Origin: Candidatus Hydrogenedens sp. | GTDB lineage: Bacteria > Hydrogenedentota > Hydrogenedentia > Hydrogenedentales > CAITNO01 | Reading direction: 5' to 3' | Assembly (NCBI GenBank): GCA_012522755.1 | Contig: JAAYJV010000048.1 | Coordinates: forward strand, 16,425-80,424 | Length of the DNA stretch: 64,000 nucleotides | Shown: positions 8,290 to 56,068 of the stretch, one piece after another | How positions within the stretch are numbered: position 1 is the stretch's first letter | Layout: each line of letters begins with the position of its first letter | Program-made: the position numbers and the translations under genes | Notes under the pieces: model-generated | The model's input: the letters and a program-made list of their open reading frames with translations, nothing else | The model's database searches: none | Told to the model about the DNA's origin: nothing

Positions 8290-10392
8290 TCAGATGAGCA
8301 GCGAGCCGATCTGATAAAAGGCAATGGCCAGAATAAAGGCAAATGTCGTGGAATAGAGAGTGGCGAACAGCGCCCACTTCCATGAACCGCTTTCACGCCG
8401 GATCACGGCGATTGTGACCAGACAGGGCGCATAGAGCATGACAAAGACCATGAGTGCAAAGGCGCGAACAGGATTCCAATCAGGCTTCTGAGCCAGGTGT
8501 TCAGACAGGGAGAGGAAATTATCCTCATCCGTATTTTCCAGGGCATAGGCTGTGCCGAGAACGCCCAGAACCACTTCTTTCGCTGCAAAACCGCCGATGA
8601 GCGCAATATTCGTGCGCCAGTCGAAACCGGCGGCCTGACTCACAGGCTCCAGCGCTTTACCGGCACGACCCGCAAAACTGAAGGCCAGATGCTCATCAGC
8701 GGCCACATCTTCAGCGGGTCGGGGAAAATACATGAGTGCCCAGAGTACCAGATTGATGGCCAGAATGACTGTCCCGGCTTTCTTCACGTACATCCAGGTG
8801 CGTTCCCAGGTGTGGCGCAGAACTCCACGCAGCACAGGCATGTGATAGGGGGGCAGTTCCATGACAAAAGGCATCTGCTCGCCCCGGACAAGTGTACGCC
8901 GCAGAATCCAGGCGGCCACCAGTGCCGTGATCCAGGAAAGAGCCCAGAGAATCATCATGATGAGCGTGCGGTTATGGGGAAAAAATGCCGCAATGAGCAT
9001 GGCATAAACAGGCATTTTCGCTCCGCAATTCATGAAGGGCGTGACAAGCATGGTGACCAGCCTGTCCCGGTCCTCGCGCATGGTGCGTGTGGACATGATC
9101 CCCGGAACAGCACAACCGCCCGCACCCAGACCGCCGGCAACGATAAAGGCGAGGATGCTTTTTCCCTGCAGTCCGAAAGTGCGCAGAGGGCGGTCCAGAA
9201 TAAAGGCCACCCGGGCGATATACCCGCTGTCTTCCAGTGCCGCGACAAAAAGAAACATGAAAAATATGAGAGGCACAAAACTCATCACACCGCCCACGCC
9301 TCCGATAACACCGTCATTCAAGAGGGAATAAAGCATGGGCATGCTTTCCTCCAGAGGCGTTATAAAGCGGGACAGGGAAAGAAAGAGCGTTTCCATGAAG
9401 CCCGTGGGACTTTGGAAGCCATCGAACCAGGGAATCCATGCCCATTCATCAGAGACTTTGAAGACCCAGAAAAAAAGGGCCGCCACAACCATAACAAGAA
9501 TGAGAGGACCGGCAATACGGTTGCAGACAATAAGATCGAGACTTTCCGTGATGTCACGGCGGTTGCTCGCCGTATGGGTCACGCAGCTTTTCACCATTCC
9601 GGCCGCAATGCCGTAGCGGTGTTCCGCCACAAGAGTGGAGGCATCCGCATTGAAATGTCTTTCAATACGACTGATGGCATCATCGGCCTGCTTCAAAAGT
9701 GCATCGCTTTCAGAAGGAGTCAGGTCCCGTATTTCAGTGGCTGCACGCTCATCTTTTTCCAGAAGTTTGACAGCCAGCCAGGCGGGTGAAAAACGTTCTT
9801 TCAGAGCCGGAATCTTTTCGATAACCCGGGTCAGGGACACCACCTCATCGTCCACACCGTGACCATAAGACAGGGGGGAGGGATCGGCCTTTTCTTTTCC
9901 GTGAAGAACAGCCAGGCTTGCAGCGGATATCTCATCAATACCCTTATCCCGGCAGGCGATGGTGGGGATAACCGGAACACCCAGAAGCTGTGAGAGACCT
10001 TCCACATCAATCTTGTAGCCGCGCCGCTCAGCCGTATCCATCATGTTCAGTGCGATCACCATGGGTATCTGCATTTCCATGAGCTGAATGGTCAGATAGA
10101 GATTGCGCTCAAGATTGGATGCGTCAACAACATTGATGATGAGGGAGGGATGCTCATCGAGAATAAAATTACGGGCTACCAGTTCTTCTCTGCTGTAGGC
10201 CGTCAGTGAATAGGTACCCGGAAGATCCACCACAGTCGTGCGCTGTCCCTGCCAGCGCAGCACACCGCTTTTGATATCTACGGTAACACCCGGATAATTG
10301 CTGACCTGCTGAGCGGAGCCGGTCAGTGCATTATAGAGGCAGGTTTTTCCTGCATTGGGATTGCCTGCTATGACTATTTTGCCAGAGGACAT
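8290..10392 (-). CDS. feoB: Ferrous iron transport protein B
   Basis: Start at 10392: MSSGKIVIAGNPNAGKTCLYNALTGSAQQVSNYPGVTVD, DLPGTYSL, NVVDASNLERNLYLTIQL, gate domains with GGLGAGGCAVPGIMSTRTM and FMNCGAKMPVYAML. Confidence 0.95.
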   Translation of the reverse strand: MSSGKIVIAGNPNAGKTCLYNALTGSAQQVSNYPGVTVDIKSGVLRWQGQRTTVVDLPGTYSLTAYSREELVARNFILDEHPSLIINVVDASNLERNLYLTIQLMEMQIPMVIALNMMDTAERRGYKIDVEGLSQLLGVPVIPTIACRDKGIDEISAASLAVLHGKEKADPSPLSYGHGVDDEVVSLTRVIEKIPALKERFSPAWLAVKLLEKDERAATEIRDLTPSESDALLKQADDAISRIERHFNADASTLVAEHRYGIAAGMVKSCVTHTASNRRDITESLDLIVCNRIAGPLILVMVVAALFFWVFKVSDEWAWIPWFDGFQSPTGFMETLFLSLSRFITPLEESMPMLYSLLNDGVIGGVGGVMSFVPLIFFMFLFVAALEDSGYIARVAFILDRPLRTFGLQGKSILAFIVAGGLGAGGCAVPGIMSTRTMREDRDRLVTMLVTPFMNCGAKMPVYAMLIAAFFPHNRTLIMMILWALSWITALVAAWILRRTLVRGEQMPFVMELPPYHMPVLRGVLRHTWERTWMYVKKAGTVILAINLVLWALMYFPRPAEDVAADEHLAFSFAGRAGKALEPVSQAAGFDWRTNIALIGGFAAKEVVLGVLGTAYALENTDEDNFLSLSEHLAQKPDWNPVRAFALMVFVMLYAPCLVTIAVIRRESGSWKWALFATLYSTTFAFILAIAFYQIGSLLI

Positions 10393-50561: not shown

Positions 50562-50849
50562 GGGGGCTGTCCTTTTTTAATAAGGTCTGTGGTTGTGTGC
50601 AGTACGCAATAATGGAATCATAGCAAATCCGGGAAGGAAGAAGAAATTGCTTTTGCCAGAGGGCTGTGCGCCAAGTGGACGGCGGGGCGAGCCTCTGGAT
50701 CTTTACAAAGACATTGAGGTTATAAAGATCTCTCAGAGTCGGTCGGATCGGACGGATCGGTCGGATCGGACGGATGTGGGAGAGGCTCGGGTTGGGGTCA
50801 GGACATTTATGATGAGTTAGTGGACAGAATGGACCGAGTTGGACCAATT

Positions 50850-50869
50850 GGGCACGGCATGCCGTGCCC
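50850..50869. repeat. 20-bp perfect palindrome, copy 1
   Basis: GGGCACGGCATGCCGTGCCC. Confidence 0.95.
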
Positions 50870-51068: not shown

Positions 51069-51088
51069 GGGCACGGCATGCCGTGCCC
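51069..51088. repeat. 20-bp perfect palindrome, copy 2
   Basis: GGGCACGGCATGCCGTGCCC. Confidence 0.95.
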
Positions 51089-51263
51089 CTACCTGCCCTC
51101 GTTCCTCGTTCATCGCCCCTCATCCCCGTCCCTTGCCCTCGCTCCTTGCCCCTCATAACGCCTTTTGAGTCAGTCTATGTTAAAATATAAACTATTCAGG
51201 GACAGGCTGTTCCAAAGCCTTATCACAGGCTTGTGCAAAGCGACACCATAGAAAGGTATTTCA

Positions 51264-52529
51264 TTGAAAAAACGTTTATCCATTGCTCTGGTTGGTGCCG
51301 GTATGTTTGGCGGTGATGTGCATATGCGCGCTTATTGCCAGTTTGCCCGATATGGCTTGTTGCCCTGGCTGGGTCGTCTGGGTCTGGATTGCAGTGCCCG
51401 TGCTCTGGGCGATATCGAAATCGATTTCGTGGCTTTGGGAACCCGTACGGAAGCTTCAGCAAAAGCACGGCTTGCGGAATTTCAAAAGATGGGTCTGGAC
51501 TTCGCCATTTACCACGGAGAAGAACCCTGGGTGGATATTCTCCGGGATTTCCCTGATCTGGATGTGCTTGCCATTGCCACACCGGACCATCTTCACACGG
51601 CTCCGGCTCTGGCTGCTCTGGAGGCCGGTGCCCATGTGATCATGGAAAAGCCCATGGCTCTAGATGCGGAAGAGGCGGATGCCATCATCGCCGCTGCGAA
51701 AAAATCGGGACGTATCGTCGGTGTGGACATGCACAAGCGTTATGACCCCGATCACCTGCGGATCCGTGATGACTTGCTGGAAAAAATCGGGGAGCCTCTT
51801 TACGGCGTGGCTCTTCTGGAAGAACCTCTGGCCGTGTCCACGGAAGTATTCAAAGGCTGGGCTGAAAAAAGCGATCCTTTCAGTTATGTGGGCTGTCACT
51901 GGACTGATCTGTTCATCGCCATGATGGGTGTGAAACCTGTATCCCTCCATGCTGTAGGCCAGAAGAAAAAGCTTCGCCAGGAATATAACATGGATGCTTT
52001 TGATGCGGTCCAGGTGAAAATTCAATTTGATAACGGCATGAGTATCGACTTTCATAACAACTGGATTCTTCCGGATTCCTTTGAAGGACCCGTGAACCAG
52101 GAAAGCCGCATTTTCGGGACTCATGGTCTTGTTGAATCGGATACGCAATACAGAGGCCTGCGCTTCGTGTCCGAAAAGGAAGGCATGAAGACAGCCAATG
52201 TGCATATGACCCGCAATGTGAAACGACCTGACAACAGTCAGGCCTATTGTGGCTATGGCGTGGACAGTATCACTGTTTGTATCGAAAAAATCGCACAAGT
52301 GAAGTTTCTTGGCAAAAGTCCGGAAGAACTGGCTGATGAGTATCCCAATGCGGAGGAAGGACGCCTCTCCGTCCTCATAGTCCATGCGGCCCGTGAAGTG
52401 ATGATGCGCAATCATGCTTATCTGGAAGAAGGCAAAGGCGCACCTGTGACAGCCCTTTTCAATGTAGAAGGCATTACGATTGTGGATCCTTACAAAGGCA
52501 ATGAACTGATTTACAAGCGTCCGATCTGA
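51264..52529 (+). CDS. Gfo/Idh/MocA family oxidoreductase (TTG start)
   Basis: LSIALVGAGMFGGDVHMRAY, DVLAIATPDHLHTAPALAALEAGAHVIMEKPMALDAEEADAIIAAAKKSGRIVGVDMHKRYDP. Confidence 0.92.
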   Translation: MKKRLSIALVGAGMFGGDVHMRAYCQFARYGLLPWLGRLGLDCSARALGDIEIDFVALGTRTEASAKARLAEFQKMGLDFAIYHGEEPWVDILRDFPDLDVLAIATPDHLHTAPALAALEAGAHVIMEKPMALDAEEADAIIAAAKKSGRIVGVDMHKRYDPDHLRIRDDLLEKIGEPLYGVALLEEPLAVSTEVFKGWAEKSDPFSYVGCHWTDLFIAMMGVKPVSLHAVGQKKKLRQEYNMDAFDAVQVKIQFDNGMSIDFHNNWILPDSFEGPVNQESRIFGTHGLVESDTQYRGLRFVSEKEGMKTANVHMTRNVKRPDNSQAYCGYGVDSITVCIEKIAQVKFLGKSPEELADEYPNAEEGRLSVLIVHAAREVMMRNHAYLEEGKGAPVTALFNVEGITIVDPYKGNELIYKRPI

Positions 52530-52585
52530 ATGCACAAGGCACTGTCCGCCTGAAAGGGATGGACTGACCAAGGAGACCTATACCC

Positions 52586-53296
52586 GTGGCTCGTATGGCT
52601 CGTTTTATTGTTCCCGGTTTTGTACACCATGTGGAACAACACAGTTCTCTGGACGCCCCTGTTTTTCGTTCCGACGGAGATTATAAAAAATACCTCAGTC
52701 TTCTGGCGGAGCATGCCCTGGAAAAAGGAGTGTCCATCTGGGCCTACTGTATTCTACCCCACAGCATTCATCTCGTTGTGGTTCCTCGCGACGAAGAGGC
52801 CCTGAGCTCCATGATTCGCGATGTGCATGCTTTCTACTCCGCCTATTATAATTTGACCTATGATCATAGCGGTACACTCTGGCGTGGTCGTTTTCAAAGT
52901 TGTGTCGTTGATGATCTGCTTGTGATGACGGCTGTTCGTCTGGTGGAATGTCACCCGGCGCATCTGGGGCTGGTGGACAGGGCCGAAAAATATGAGTGGT
53001 CCAGTGCGGCCGCCCACAGCAGCCGGGAGGAGCATCCTTTCCTGGAAAAAAGCTTTCCGCCTCCCGATATGCGTGACAACTGGCCTTCTTTTCTGAAGGA
53101 AAGTACACAGGCCGAGGCACTGGAAGAACAGCTTCAGATGTATACCCGTACGGGCCGTCCCTGGGGCACTCTGGAGTTTCTTCTTGGCCTCGAAAAACAA
53201 TATAATCGGAGTTTGATCCCTCGTAAACGGGGACGAAAACCCAAGCAGAAAAACAATGATGATGGAGTATCTGTTGAAGATGAGACAGAGGAGTAG
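52586..53296 (+). CDS. REP-associated tyrosine transposase (Y1_Tnp/RAYT)-like protein with altered catalytic motif
   Basis: MARMARFIVPGFVHHVEQHSSLDAPVFRSDGDYKKYLSLLAEHALEKGVSIWAYCILPHSIHLVVVP...HAFYSAYYNLTYDHSGTLWRGRFQS...RLVECHPAHLGLVDRAEKYEWSSAAAH; overall pattern of RAYTs but HSIH where NHVH is expected. Confidence 0.85.
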   Translation: MARMARFIVPGFVHHVEQHSSLDAPVFRSDGDYKKYLSLLAEHALEKGVSIWAYCILPHSIHLVVVPRDEEALSSMIRDVHAFYSAYYNLTYDHSGTLWRGRFQSCVVDDLLVMTAVRLVECHPAHLGLVDRAEKYEWSSAAAHSSREEHPFLEKSFPPPDMRDNWPSFLKESTQAEALEEQLQMYTRTGRPWGTLEFLLGLEKQYNRSLIPRKRGRKPKQKNNDDGVSVEDETEE

Positions 53297-53305
53297 CGAA
53301 AACCC

Positions 53306-54286
53306 ATGGCGGCCATAGTAACCACTGATTTGAGCAAGAGCTACAAGCAACTGGGCAAAGCGACCGTTCATTCTCTCTCCGGCCTGAACATGGAGGTGGG
53401 TGAGAACGAAATCTTCGGTTTTCTGGGAAGAAATGGAGCAGGAAAGACGACAGCCATCAAGTTGCTGACGGGACTGATCCGGGCGAGCCGTGGCGGAGCA
53501 GAAATATTCGGGAAAGATTCACGCCTTCCCGATGCCCGCGCTCATATAGGCTATCTTCCCGAACACCCCTATTTTTATGAGTATCTGACGCCCAGAGAAA
53601 GCCTGGAGTTTTACGCGGAGCTTCGCGGCGTGGAAAAGAGCCGGCGTAAATCGGAATGGCTCCGTATTTCCGAGATGTTGGATCTGGACGAGTTTGCAGA
53701 CAGACGTATCCGTGGCTTTTCCAAAGGCATGCGTCAACGTGTCGGTCTGGCTGTGTCGCTCATTGGCGATCCGCCGTTGCTGATTCTGGATGAGCCCATG
53801 AGCGGCTTGGATCCTCACGGTCGGCGCATGGTTCGCGAGCTCATGCTCCGACTTCGCAGCGAAGGCAAAACTGTCTTTTTCAGCTCTCATATCCTCTCTG
53901 ATGTGGAAGAAATTTCCGACCGCGTCGCCATTCTCGTCTCAGGGAAACTGGCGGCCAGCGGGCGTATTGAAGACTTGAGTGGCGACGGTGAAAAAGCCAT
54001 TGAACTGTGCTGTACCGGTCTGAAGGGGGAAGCTTTAAATGCTCTGGCGGCCCGTGGCATGAAGGGCACAGCCGATGAGGAAGGGCGGATTCGCTTTCTC
54101 GTCCCGGATGTGGACCAGAGTGCTGGCCTCATCACTGAAATTCAACAACAGGGAGGCATCTTACTCTCCATGGTTCCTGTTCTGGAGTCCTTGGAAGACT
54201 TCTTCACCAAACTGGAGCAGCGGGATCCTTCCTCTGGGAGAAAAGAAACGAAATCGGCTGCGAAGGAGACTGAGTCCCATGAATAG
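53306..54286 (+). CDS. ABC transporter ATP-binding protein
   Basis: Walker A GFLGRNGAGKTTAIKLLTG, signature FSKGMRQRVGLAVSLIGDPPLLILDEPMSGLDPHGRR, H-loop FFSSHIL. Confidence 0.95.
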   Translation: MAAIVTTDLSKSYKQLGKATVHSLSGLNMEVGENEIFGFLGRNGAGKTTAIKLLTGLIRASRGGAEIFGKDSRLPDARAHIGYLPEHPYFYEYLTPRESLEFYAELRGVEKSRRKSEWLRISEMLDLDEFADRRIRGFSKGMRQRVGLAVSLIGDPPLLILDEPMSGLDPHGRRMVRELMLRLRSEGKTVFFSSHILSDVEEISDRVAILVSGKLAASGRIEDLSGDGEKAIELCCTGLKGEALNALAARGMKGTADEEGRIRFLVPDVDQSAGLITEIQQQGGILLSMVPVLESLEDFFTKLEQRDPSSGRKETKSAAKETESHE

Positions 54287-55043
54287 AATCATCACCATTG
54301 CCCGCAATACCTTCACTGAATCCGTTCGGGATAAAGTTCTGTATGTCCTTCTTTTCTTCGCCCTGTCCACCATTCTGGGCTCCAAAGTACTGGGTTGGAT
54401 CAGTATCGGTCAGAGCATCAAAATCATCAAGGATATTTCTCTGGCGGCCATGTCCGTATTCGGAGCGCTCATCGCCATTTTTGTGGGTGCCACGCTGGTG
54501 TACAAAGAGATAGACAAGAAAACACTCTATACCATCCTGGCGCAACCCATGAAACGCCATGAATTCATTGTCGGCAAATATCTGGGACTGATGAGCCTGC
54601 TGGCCGTATCGCTGTTCATTATGGCGGCCGGTTCCACACTCTACCTGAAAATTTCAGGAGCCAACCTGGGTGTGATCTGGATACAGGCCATTGTGCTGAT
54701 TTATATGAAGCTGCTTCTCATCACCGCTTTCGCCATTTTATTGTCCAGCCTCGTTTCTCCAATTCTGGGAGCAATCATAGTCTTTTCATTTTATGTGGGC
54801 GGTCATGCAACCGATGTTTTCCGTGATCTTCCGCCTCAGTTTAAAGATACCCTTTCCAAGCAGGTTCTGGAGATCCTCTATTATGTGGTTCCCAATCTGA
54901 ATCTTTTCAATATCCAGTCTGAAGCGGCGAATATGGTACCTGTCACCTGGTCTTATGTCTGTTATACCTTCTGCTACAGTCTGAGTTGGACTGTGCTGTT
55001 ATTGATTCTGGCCTGCCTGGCTTTTGAGAGGCGCGATGTATGA
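54279..55043 (+). CDS. ABC-2 type transporter permease
   Basis: MNRIITIARNTFTESVRDKVLYVLLFFALSTILGSKVLGW..., six predicted TM helices, KEIDKKTLYTILAQPMKRHEFIVGKYLGL. Confidence 0.88.
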   Translation: MNRIITIARNTFTESVRDKVLYVLLFFALSTILGSKVLGWISIGQSIKIIKDISLAAMSVFGALIAIFVGATLVYKEIDKKTLYTILAQPMKRHEFIVGKYLGLMSLLAVSLFIMAAGSTLYLKISGANLGVIWIQAIVLIYMKLLLITAFAILLSSLVSPILGAIIVFSFYVGGHATDVFRDLPPQFKDTLSKQVLEILYYVVPNLNLFNIQSEAANMVPVTWSYVCYTFCYSLSWTVLLLILACLAFERRDV

Positions 55044-56068
55044 GCCGCCCCATTCGTATTATAAGCTTTCTTCTCGTGCTTTCCCTCTGCTTCGGCACGG
55101 CGACGATTTTCTTGCAGCTGGCCGATGGCAAGCGCAAAGACCGCGACAATGAAGAACTGCTTTACCTTCCCAATGAAAAACTGTTGAGTTATTTCACAGC
55201 CGGATTGAACACTGTCATTGCCGATTTGATCTGGCTCCATTGCATCCAGTACACGGCCCATGAACACCGGGGCAAGCGGGTCTTCAAATGGCTGGAACAC
55301 ATGCTGATTACGGCGACCCGCCTCGATCCCTATTTTGTGGATGTATACCGCTTCGGCGTCATGTTTCTCGCCGCTCTCAGGGCCGATCCGGACGCCAGTC
55401 TCAATCTGGCTTATGAAGGCGTGAAAGTGAATCCTCATGCCTGGTCGCTGCCTTATGAGGCGGCCATGGTCTATCTGTTGAACAAGCGCGAAGAAGAGAA
55501 TTCACGCTACATGGCCACCCAGCTCTTGAGTCTGGCCACTTCCACAGGCCACGCTCCTGGCGGTATCGTGAATCTTACGGCAAAGCTTCAGGATGAATTC
55601 AATCTTCTCGAAGTGGAGCAGGATATGTGGGTGGAAATGGCCGCCAGCCACGACAGCTTTCTCAGTGAGCTGGGCAAAAGAAAGCTGGAAGAAATTGAAC
55701 TGAAAAAGATTACAGAAATATTGAACAGACAGAGCCGCCTGTATTACCAGGAAAAAGGACAATACCCGAGCTCTCTGGAAGATTTGCTTGAAGCCGGGCT
55801 GATTCCCTATCTGCCAGAAGACGGGCTGGGCGGTGAATTTTTTCTGGGAGACGAAGGCCGGGCATATAATACAACCCTGCTGGAAGATGAGGTGATCCGG
55901 GCCAGAAATATTCTGATCAATGCTCTGGACGTATACCATGCCACGCACAACGCCTATCCCCATACTCTGGAAGGACTGGTGGAAGACGGGCAACTGGACG
56001 CCATCCCGGAGCATCCCTATCCCGGAAAGAGCTGGGATTATGATCCCTCATTGGCCGAGGTGCACTGA
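55040..56068 (+). CDS. Hypothetical membrane-anchored protein with TPR-like region and pseudopilin-like C-terminal repeats
   Basis: N-terminal TM IRIISFLLVLSLCFGTATIF; ITATRLDPYFVDVYRFGVMFLAALRADPDASLNLAYEGVKVNP; two motifs YYQEKGQYPSSLEDLLEAGLIPYLPEDGLGGEFF and YHATHNAYPHTLEGLVEDGQLDAIPEHPYPGKSWDYDP. Confidence 0.65.
   Translation: MSRPIRIISFLLVLSLCFGTATIFLQLADGKRKDRDNEELLYLPNEKLLSYFTAGLNTVIADLIWLHCIQYTAHEHRGKRVFKWLEHMLITATRLDPYFVDVYRFGVMFLAALRADPDASLNLAYEGVKVNPHAWSLPYEAAMVYLLNKREEENSRYMATQLLSLATSTGHAPGGIVNLTAKLQDEFNLLEVEQDMWVEMAASHDSFLSELGKRKLEEIELKKITEILNRQSRLYYQEKGQYPSSLEDLLEAGLIPYLPEDGLGGEFFLGDEGRAYNTTLLEDEVIRARNILINALDVYHATHNAYPHTLEGLVEDGQLDAIPEHPYPGKSWDYDPSLAEVH

What the first reader, a model, noticed from the sequence alone, without database searches (positions are those of the whole stretch)
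52586..53296. RAYT-like transposase-family protein with a damaged HUH motif, apparently embedded in an ABC-transporter operon
Seen: the protein has the overall RAYT/Y1 layout (MARxARxxVPGxxHHV..., WAYCxLPxxxHLVVVP, LWxGRFxS, WSSAxAH, C-terminal RKRGRKPKQK) and a Tyr-containing helix (HAFYSAYYN). Where active members normally read PNHVHL, this one reads P-HSIH-L (52760-52771), so the first HUH His is Ser. The usual QRGNRRQPVF stretch is EQHSSLDAPVF. Its stop lies 9 bp before an ABC ATPase that is itself overlapped with a permease and a third gene. Inference: a domesticated RAYT whose nicking chemistry is lost or altered and which may act as a DNA/RNA-binding protein.
Basis: partly seen in the sequence, partly recalled or inferred. 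Interest (0 to 1): 0.66.

Follow-up and report, generated by a model that had tools for sequence, protein, structure and literature searches.

The report
Catalytically dead, operon-embedded RAYT transposase relative
A gene descended from a DNA-nicking transposase has lost the residues needed to cut DNA, yet two bacterial genera keep it intact next to the same transporter operon, so the host has probably repurposed it, most likely as a nucleic-acid-binding regulator.

Summary
The 236-aa ORF is real. It is a remote TnpA-REP (RAYT/TIRYT) protein from a Candidatus Hydrogenedentota genome, and the only Y1 transposase homologue found there. Judged by E. coli TnpA-REP (4ER8) and the class 2 signature Y---NP, the catalytic Tyr is position 119 and the Asn metal ligand is 123; here they are Leu and His.

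The gene precedes the same ABC operon in four genomes of two sister genera. These four proteins form one clade (100/99). All lack Tyr119 and Asn123. One genus has also lost the first HUH His (Ser), the other the second (Arg). Of 61 relatives, 54 keep all four residues and none lacks both Tyr and Asn. Most relatives have GGGACA/TGTCCC ends; these four do not. The outgroup genus shows the site without the gene. Synonymous sites are saturated, yet the frame, most other invariant residues and a confident RAYT fold persist.

It is best read as an exapted, nickase-dead RAYT. Regulation of the operon by binding is the likeliest role but is inferred. A conserved GGGACAG at the operon promoter is a weak lead.

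The parts
52586..53296 (+). Nickase-dead RAYT/TIRYT-derived protein, 236 aa, GTG start
52763..52771 (+). HUH position, Ser60-Ile61-His62 (first His replaced by Ser)
   Evidence: His in 59 of 61 relatives at position 60 and 60 of 61 at position 62
52940..52954 (+). Former catalytic Tyr / Asn ligand site (Y---N): Leu119 ... His123
   Evidence: (alignment to 4ER8 Y115/N119)
52637..52648 (+). Degenerate QRGN-type motif, residues 18-21 QHSS
53222..53251 (+). Basic C-terminal tail RKRGRKPKQK, possible non-specific nucleic-acid contact
   Evidence: sequence; function inferred
52570..52575 (+). Shine-Dalgarno-like AAGGAG of the RAYT gene, conserved in the sister species
51264..52529 (+). Gfo/Idh/MocA-type oxidoreductase immediately upstream (56 bp gap); in genus g4 it sits directly before ABC
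53306..54286 (+). ABC transporter ATPase
54279..55043 (+). ABC-2 family permease
   Evidence: start chosen from the homologous region
55040..56068 (+). Third operon gene, no Pfam or NCBIfam family, conserved across the order
51178..51206 (+). Conserved promoter-like block (TG.TAAAAT) followed by GGGACAG (51199-51205); speculative operator
   Evidence: untested lead

Best explanation
The gene is an exapted, catalytically dead TnpA-REP (RAYT/TIRYT) transposase. A transposase gene of a TIR-flanked family was fixed upstream of the ABC operon in the common ancestor of two Hydrogenedentota genera. It lost its terminal repeats, the catalytic Tyr and the Asn metal ligand, and then a different HUH His in each genus, while its fold was kept. 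This part rests on comparative evidence. Inferred, about 45% likely: the retained fold and basic tail bind DNA (or a hairpin in nascent RNA) at or near the operon without cutting, and so regulate expression of MocA-RAYT-ABC-permease. In the window's genus the gene has become a tightly packed member of that gene cluster with its own ribosome-binding site. The confidence below is for the first, evolutionary part.
For: Residues 60/62/119/123 are SHLH, SHIL, HRLL and HRLI in the four ABC-linked proteins; 54 of 61 relatives have HHYN and none of the 61 lacks both Tyr and Asn. Losses concentrate at catalytic sites: 12 of 16 catalytic cells against 20 of 164 other near-invariant cells, Fisher p = 1.5e-7 (related sequences counted separately); 31 of 41 non-catalytic near-invariant positions are kept in all four. 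The four are one clade, 100/99, which persists with the catalytic columns removed (SH-aLRT 91). Grouping the g3 copies with mobile-type copies of their own genus is rejected, p-AU 0.0005. The operon tree makes g1 and g3 sisters (98/96) with g4, which lacks the gene, outside. No GGGACA/TGTCCC lies in the flanks scanned, unlike most relatives. dN is about 0.32-0.34 with dS saturated; neutral simulation gives P(no stop) of at most 0.002. AlphaFold pLDDT 92.7; best PDB match 4ER8, TM-score by target 0.73.
Against: Only four genomes carry it and one g3 genome (G008) lacks it, so it is dispensable there. It evolves about 1.3-1.8 times faster than the neighbouring ABC gene by dN. In g3 the gene is 124 to about 200 bp from ABC, and in G003 a promoter-like sequence lies before ABC, so co-transcription is not general. 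No operator shared by both genera was found. Pfam detects no C-terminal HTH, even in canonical relatives. No hairpin stands out upstream.
Confidence: 0.8

Rival explanations
1. It acts in trans, as an RNA- or DNA-binding protein unrelated to the ABC operon, and the position is a stable accident of insertion.
For: In g3 it has its own upstream promoter-like sequence and is not tightly coupled to ABC; no shared operator found.
Against: Placement before the same operon is kept in both genera, and in g1 it is packed between MocA and ABC with 56 bp and 9 bp gaps.
Confidence: 0.25
2. It is a dominant-negative silencer that occupies the ends of active TIR transposons without cutting.
For: G003 and G016 carry active-type copies and GGGACAGACTACG ends.
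Against: The window's genome has no other Y1 homologue and no GGGACAGACTACG, yet keeps the gene; the QRGN-type motif is also lost.
Confidence: 0.1
3. It is a decaying relic with no function.
For: Absent in G008; faster evolving than its neighbours.
Against: Intact frame in four genomes over saturated synonymous divergence; 31 of 41 other near-invariant positions kept in all four.
Confidence: 0.08
4. It is still a nickase that uses substitute residues (for example Tyr84 or His123).
For: Tyr84 is kept in three of the four; His62 and His123 are present in the window protein.
Against: Tyr84 is Phe in G003; position 123 is Leu, Leu and Ile in the others; the HUH lesions differ between genera; Tyr84 is invariant in relatives alongside Tyr119, so it is not the known nucleophile.
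Confidence: 0.03

Closest known systems
TIRYT / TnpA-REP, probably subclass 2.1 (PMC3733652, PMC6006769)
   Same: Fold, sequence backbone (xHH, WAYC, W.GRF, WSSA, TGRP.G) and a C-terminal extension; its relatives carry GGGACA-type inverted ends resembling the published TIRYT motif GGGGWSAS
   Different: No catalytic Tyr, no Asn ligand, one HUH His missing, no terminal repeats, fixed synteny
E. coli TnpA-REP (PDB 4ER8)
   Same: Best structural match; equivalent positions align to Y115 and N119
   Different: TnpA-REP cleaves REP DNA (PMC8266576); this protein lacks the chemistry and is about 70 residues longer
RAYTs as domesticated but active transposases (PMC8049555)
   Same: Single copy in its genome and apparently vertically inherited
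   Different: Those are said still to replicate REPINs; this one has no recognisable catalytic centre
TldR, nuclease-dead TnpB regulators (PMC13418256 and its reference 5)
   Same: Transposon protein with a dead nuclease and a stable link to a non-transposon gene; a works-like comparison only
   Different: Unrelated protein (RuvC, RNA-guided); regulation is not shown here

Membership tests
RAYT / TnpA-REP (Y1 HUH) | Y1_Tnp fold and sequence similarity | tested here: met
   Pfam 22.4 bits, just below the cut-off of 23, 23.8 bits in the genome search; fold match 4ER8; clade among RAYTs
RAYT / TnpA-REP (Y1 HUH) | HUH metal motif | tested here: not met
   SIH in g1; HIR/HVR in g3
RAYT / TnpA-REP (Y1 HUH) | Catalytic Tyr and Asn ligand in Y---NP | tested here: not met
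   L/I/L/L at 119 and H/L/L/I at 123; P124 kept
RAYT / TnpA-REP (Y1 HUH) | Single-strand cleavage and strand transfer | not testable with these tools
   needs an in vitro assay
TIRYT element | Flanking GGGACA-type terminal inverted repeats | tested here: not met
   None within 160 bp upstream or 200 bp downstream in all four; most relatives have them
Subclass 2.1 of TnpA-Y1 | C-terminal HTH domain | tested here: inconclusive
   C-terminal helices are predicted but no Pfam HTH matched, even in 22 relatives with intact HUH
Transposon-derived transcription regulator | Binds and regulates the adjacent operon | not testable with these tools
   only synteny and a candidate promoter motif

The most novel reading that the evidence does not exclude
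A dead HUH transposase was turned into the operon's own regulator and recognises an operator that resembles its ancestral transposon end (GGGACAG at the MocA promoter): a TnpA-side counterpart to the nuclease-dead TnpB regulators.
Probability: 0.15. Interest if true: 0.8.

Novelty: new variant of a known kind. Interest (0 to 1): 0.55.

Why it matters
RAYTs are described as domesticated transposases that keep their nicking activity, and what they do for the host is unknown. Here the catalytic centre is gone while the gene is kept, so any benefit must come from something other than cutting, most simply binding. That separates the two functions and gives a defined system to test, with an outgroup that shows the same site without the gene.

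Tried and rejected
HAFYSAYYN as the catalytic-Tyr helix: rejected by the 4ER8 alignment and the Y---NP signature. Recent insertion from local mobile-type copies: rejected, p-AU 0.0005. Clade as an artefact of shared catalytic losses: it persists with those columns dropped. A genome-wide GGGACAG regulon: the other TTCAGGGACAG sites share no flanking context or promoter-like block; several look like coding sequence, by inspection only. REP-like hairpin before the gene: folds no better than shuffles. Transposon ends GGGACAGACTACG in the own genome: none. phmmer of the single protein against PDB: no hit. Sigma-70 scan of the locus: fewer sites than expected by chance. Pairwise dN/dS: dS saturated, so no exact ratio is claimed.

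Full report
Observation. The ORF at 52586-53296 encodes 236 aa from a GTG with AAGGAG ten bases upstream. HSIH is at 52760-52771 as reported. The stop is 9 bp before the ABC ATPase, which overlaps a permease, which overlaps a third gene. Pfam Y1_Tnp scores 22.4 bits (cut-off 23) and NCBIfam REP_Tyr_transpos 32.9 (cut-off 80). It is the only Y1_Tnp match in its 4.0 Mb genome.

Where the catalytic residues are. Quentin et al. 2018 give Y---NP as the signature of class 2 TnpA-REP, with E. coli N119 as a metal ligand (PMC6006769). A profile of 22 relatives aligns 4ER8 so that its Y115 and N119 fall on positions 119 and 123 (residue numbers counted from the printed alignment). The window protein has Leu119 and His123. 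So Tyr, Asn and the first HUH His are all gone.

Relatives. A search of 60 related genomes found many RAYT copies, often several per genome. Four copies precede the same ABC-permease-third-gene operon: the window, G001 (same genus; record Ca. Hydrogenedentes ADurb.Bin170), and G016 and G003 (genus g3). A profile of these four, run over the 68 genomes of the class, scores them at 411-424 bits; the next match is 298. Residues 60/62/119/123 are SHLH, SHIL, HRLL and HRLI. Among 61 other relatives, 54 have HHYN. Four depart at one position only (one Tyr to Phe, three at the Asn), and three (L165, L177, L181) have lost one HUH His and the Asn but keep Tyr. Loss in the four is concentrated at the catalytic positions (12 of 16 cells against 20 of 164; p = 1.5e-7, with related sequences counted separately).

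History. The operon is old: the third gene is found in 58 of 68 genomes of the order. A tree of the operon proteins plus the next gene makes g1 and g3 sisters (98/96) with g4 outside. In g4 MocA is followed directly by ABC with about 120 bp between them; the g3 genome G008 lacks the RAYT. The four RAYTs are one clade (100/99; SH-aLRT 91 without catalytic columns), and joining the g3 pair to mobile-type copies of its own genus is rejected. The simplest history is one insertion before the g1-g3 split and one loss in G008. Because g1 kept His62 and g3 kept His60, the HUH losses are most simply independent, after a shared loss of Tyr and Asn; this is parsimony, not a reconstruction.

Not mobile now. 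Most relatives have GGGACA upstream and TGTCCC downstream; none of the four does in the flanks scanned. These ends resemble the GGGGWSAS motif of TIRYT inverted repeats (PMC3733652). The window genome has no GGGACAGACTACG; G001 has three matches, including a short inverted dimer, although its only RAYT match is the dead one.

Selection and fold. Between the window and G001 the gene differs at 31, 25 and 56% of first, second and third codon positions; dN is about 0.32-0.34 and dS is saturated. In a simulation without selection at 0.3 substitutions per site, 0.2% of runs keep a stop-free frame. dN is about 1.3-1.8 times that of ABC. The model has mean pLDDT 92.7, and its best PDB match is 4ER8 (E 3.8e-8, TM-score 0.73 by target length); a relative with intact HUH gives nearly the same secondary structure.

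Function. Binding without cutting is the reading that fits a kept fold and a lost active site. Regulation of the operon is favoured by the conserved position and, in g1, by tight packing. In both g1 genomes a TG.TAAAAT-like block is followed by GGGACAG upstream of MocA, and the one g4 genome with that region lacks it. This rests on two genomes, the g3 regions upstream of RAYT lack it, and other copies of the word show no shared promoter context, so it is only a lead. Nuclease-dead TnpB regulators (TldR, PMC13418256) show that such exaptation happens among transposon proteins; that is an analogy, not evidence.

Novelty. Domesticated RAYTs are known and described as still active on REPINs (PMC8049555). 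I found no report of a catalytically dead, operon-fixed RAYT in the papers searched. The key paper PMC5581495 is not held, so the absence of a report is weak.

Noticed in passing
window 50850-50869 and 51069-51088: Two copies of a longer direct repeat, each with the palindrome GGGCACGGCATGCCGTGCCC, lie in the intergenic region upstream of MocA; the stretch is missing from G001.
   Followed up: partly
window 50739-50775: Tandem 18-bp repeat TCGGTCGGATCGGACGGA in the same intergenic region.
   Followed up: no
L225, L226: Short palindromic elements built on GGGACAGACTACGCAATAA in G001, whose only RAYT match is the dead one; they look like MITE-like relics of a TIRYT system.
   Followed up: partly
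L165:8001-8666, L177:8001-8675, L181:8001-8678: Other RAYTs with one HUH His and the Asn ligand changed but Tyr kept; no tight operon partner was evident.
   Followed up: partly
window 55040-56068: The third operon gene has no Pfam or NCBIfam family, yet is found in 58 of 68 genomes of the order.
   Followed up: no
L053, between RAYT and ABC (about 8690-8790 in operon orientation): Cluster of GTCCTAC/GTAGGAC repeats between RAYT and ABC in G016.
   Followed up: no
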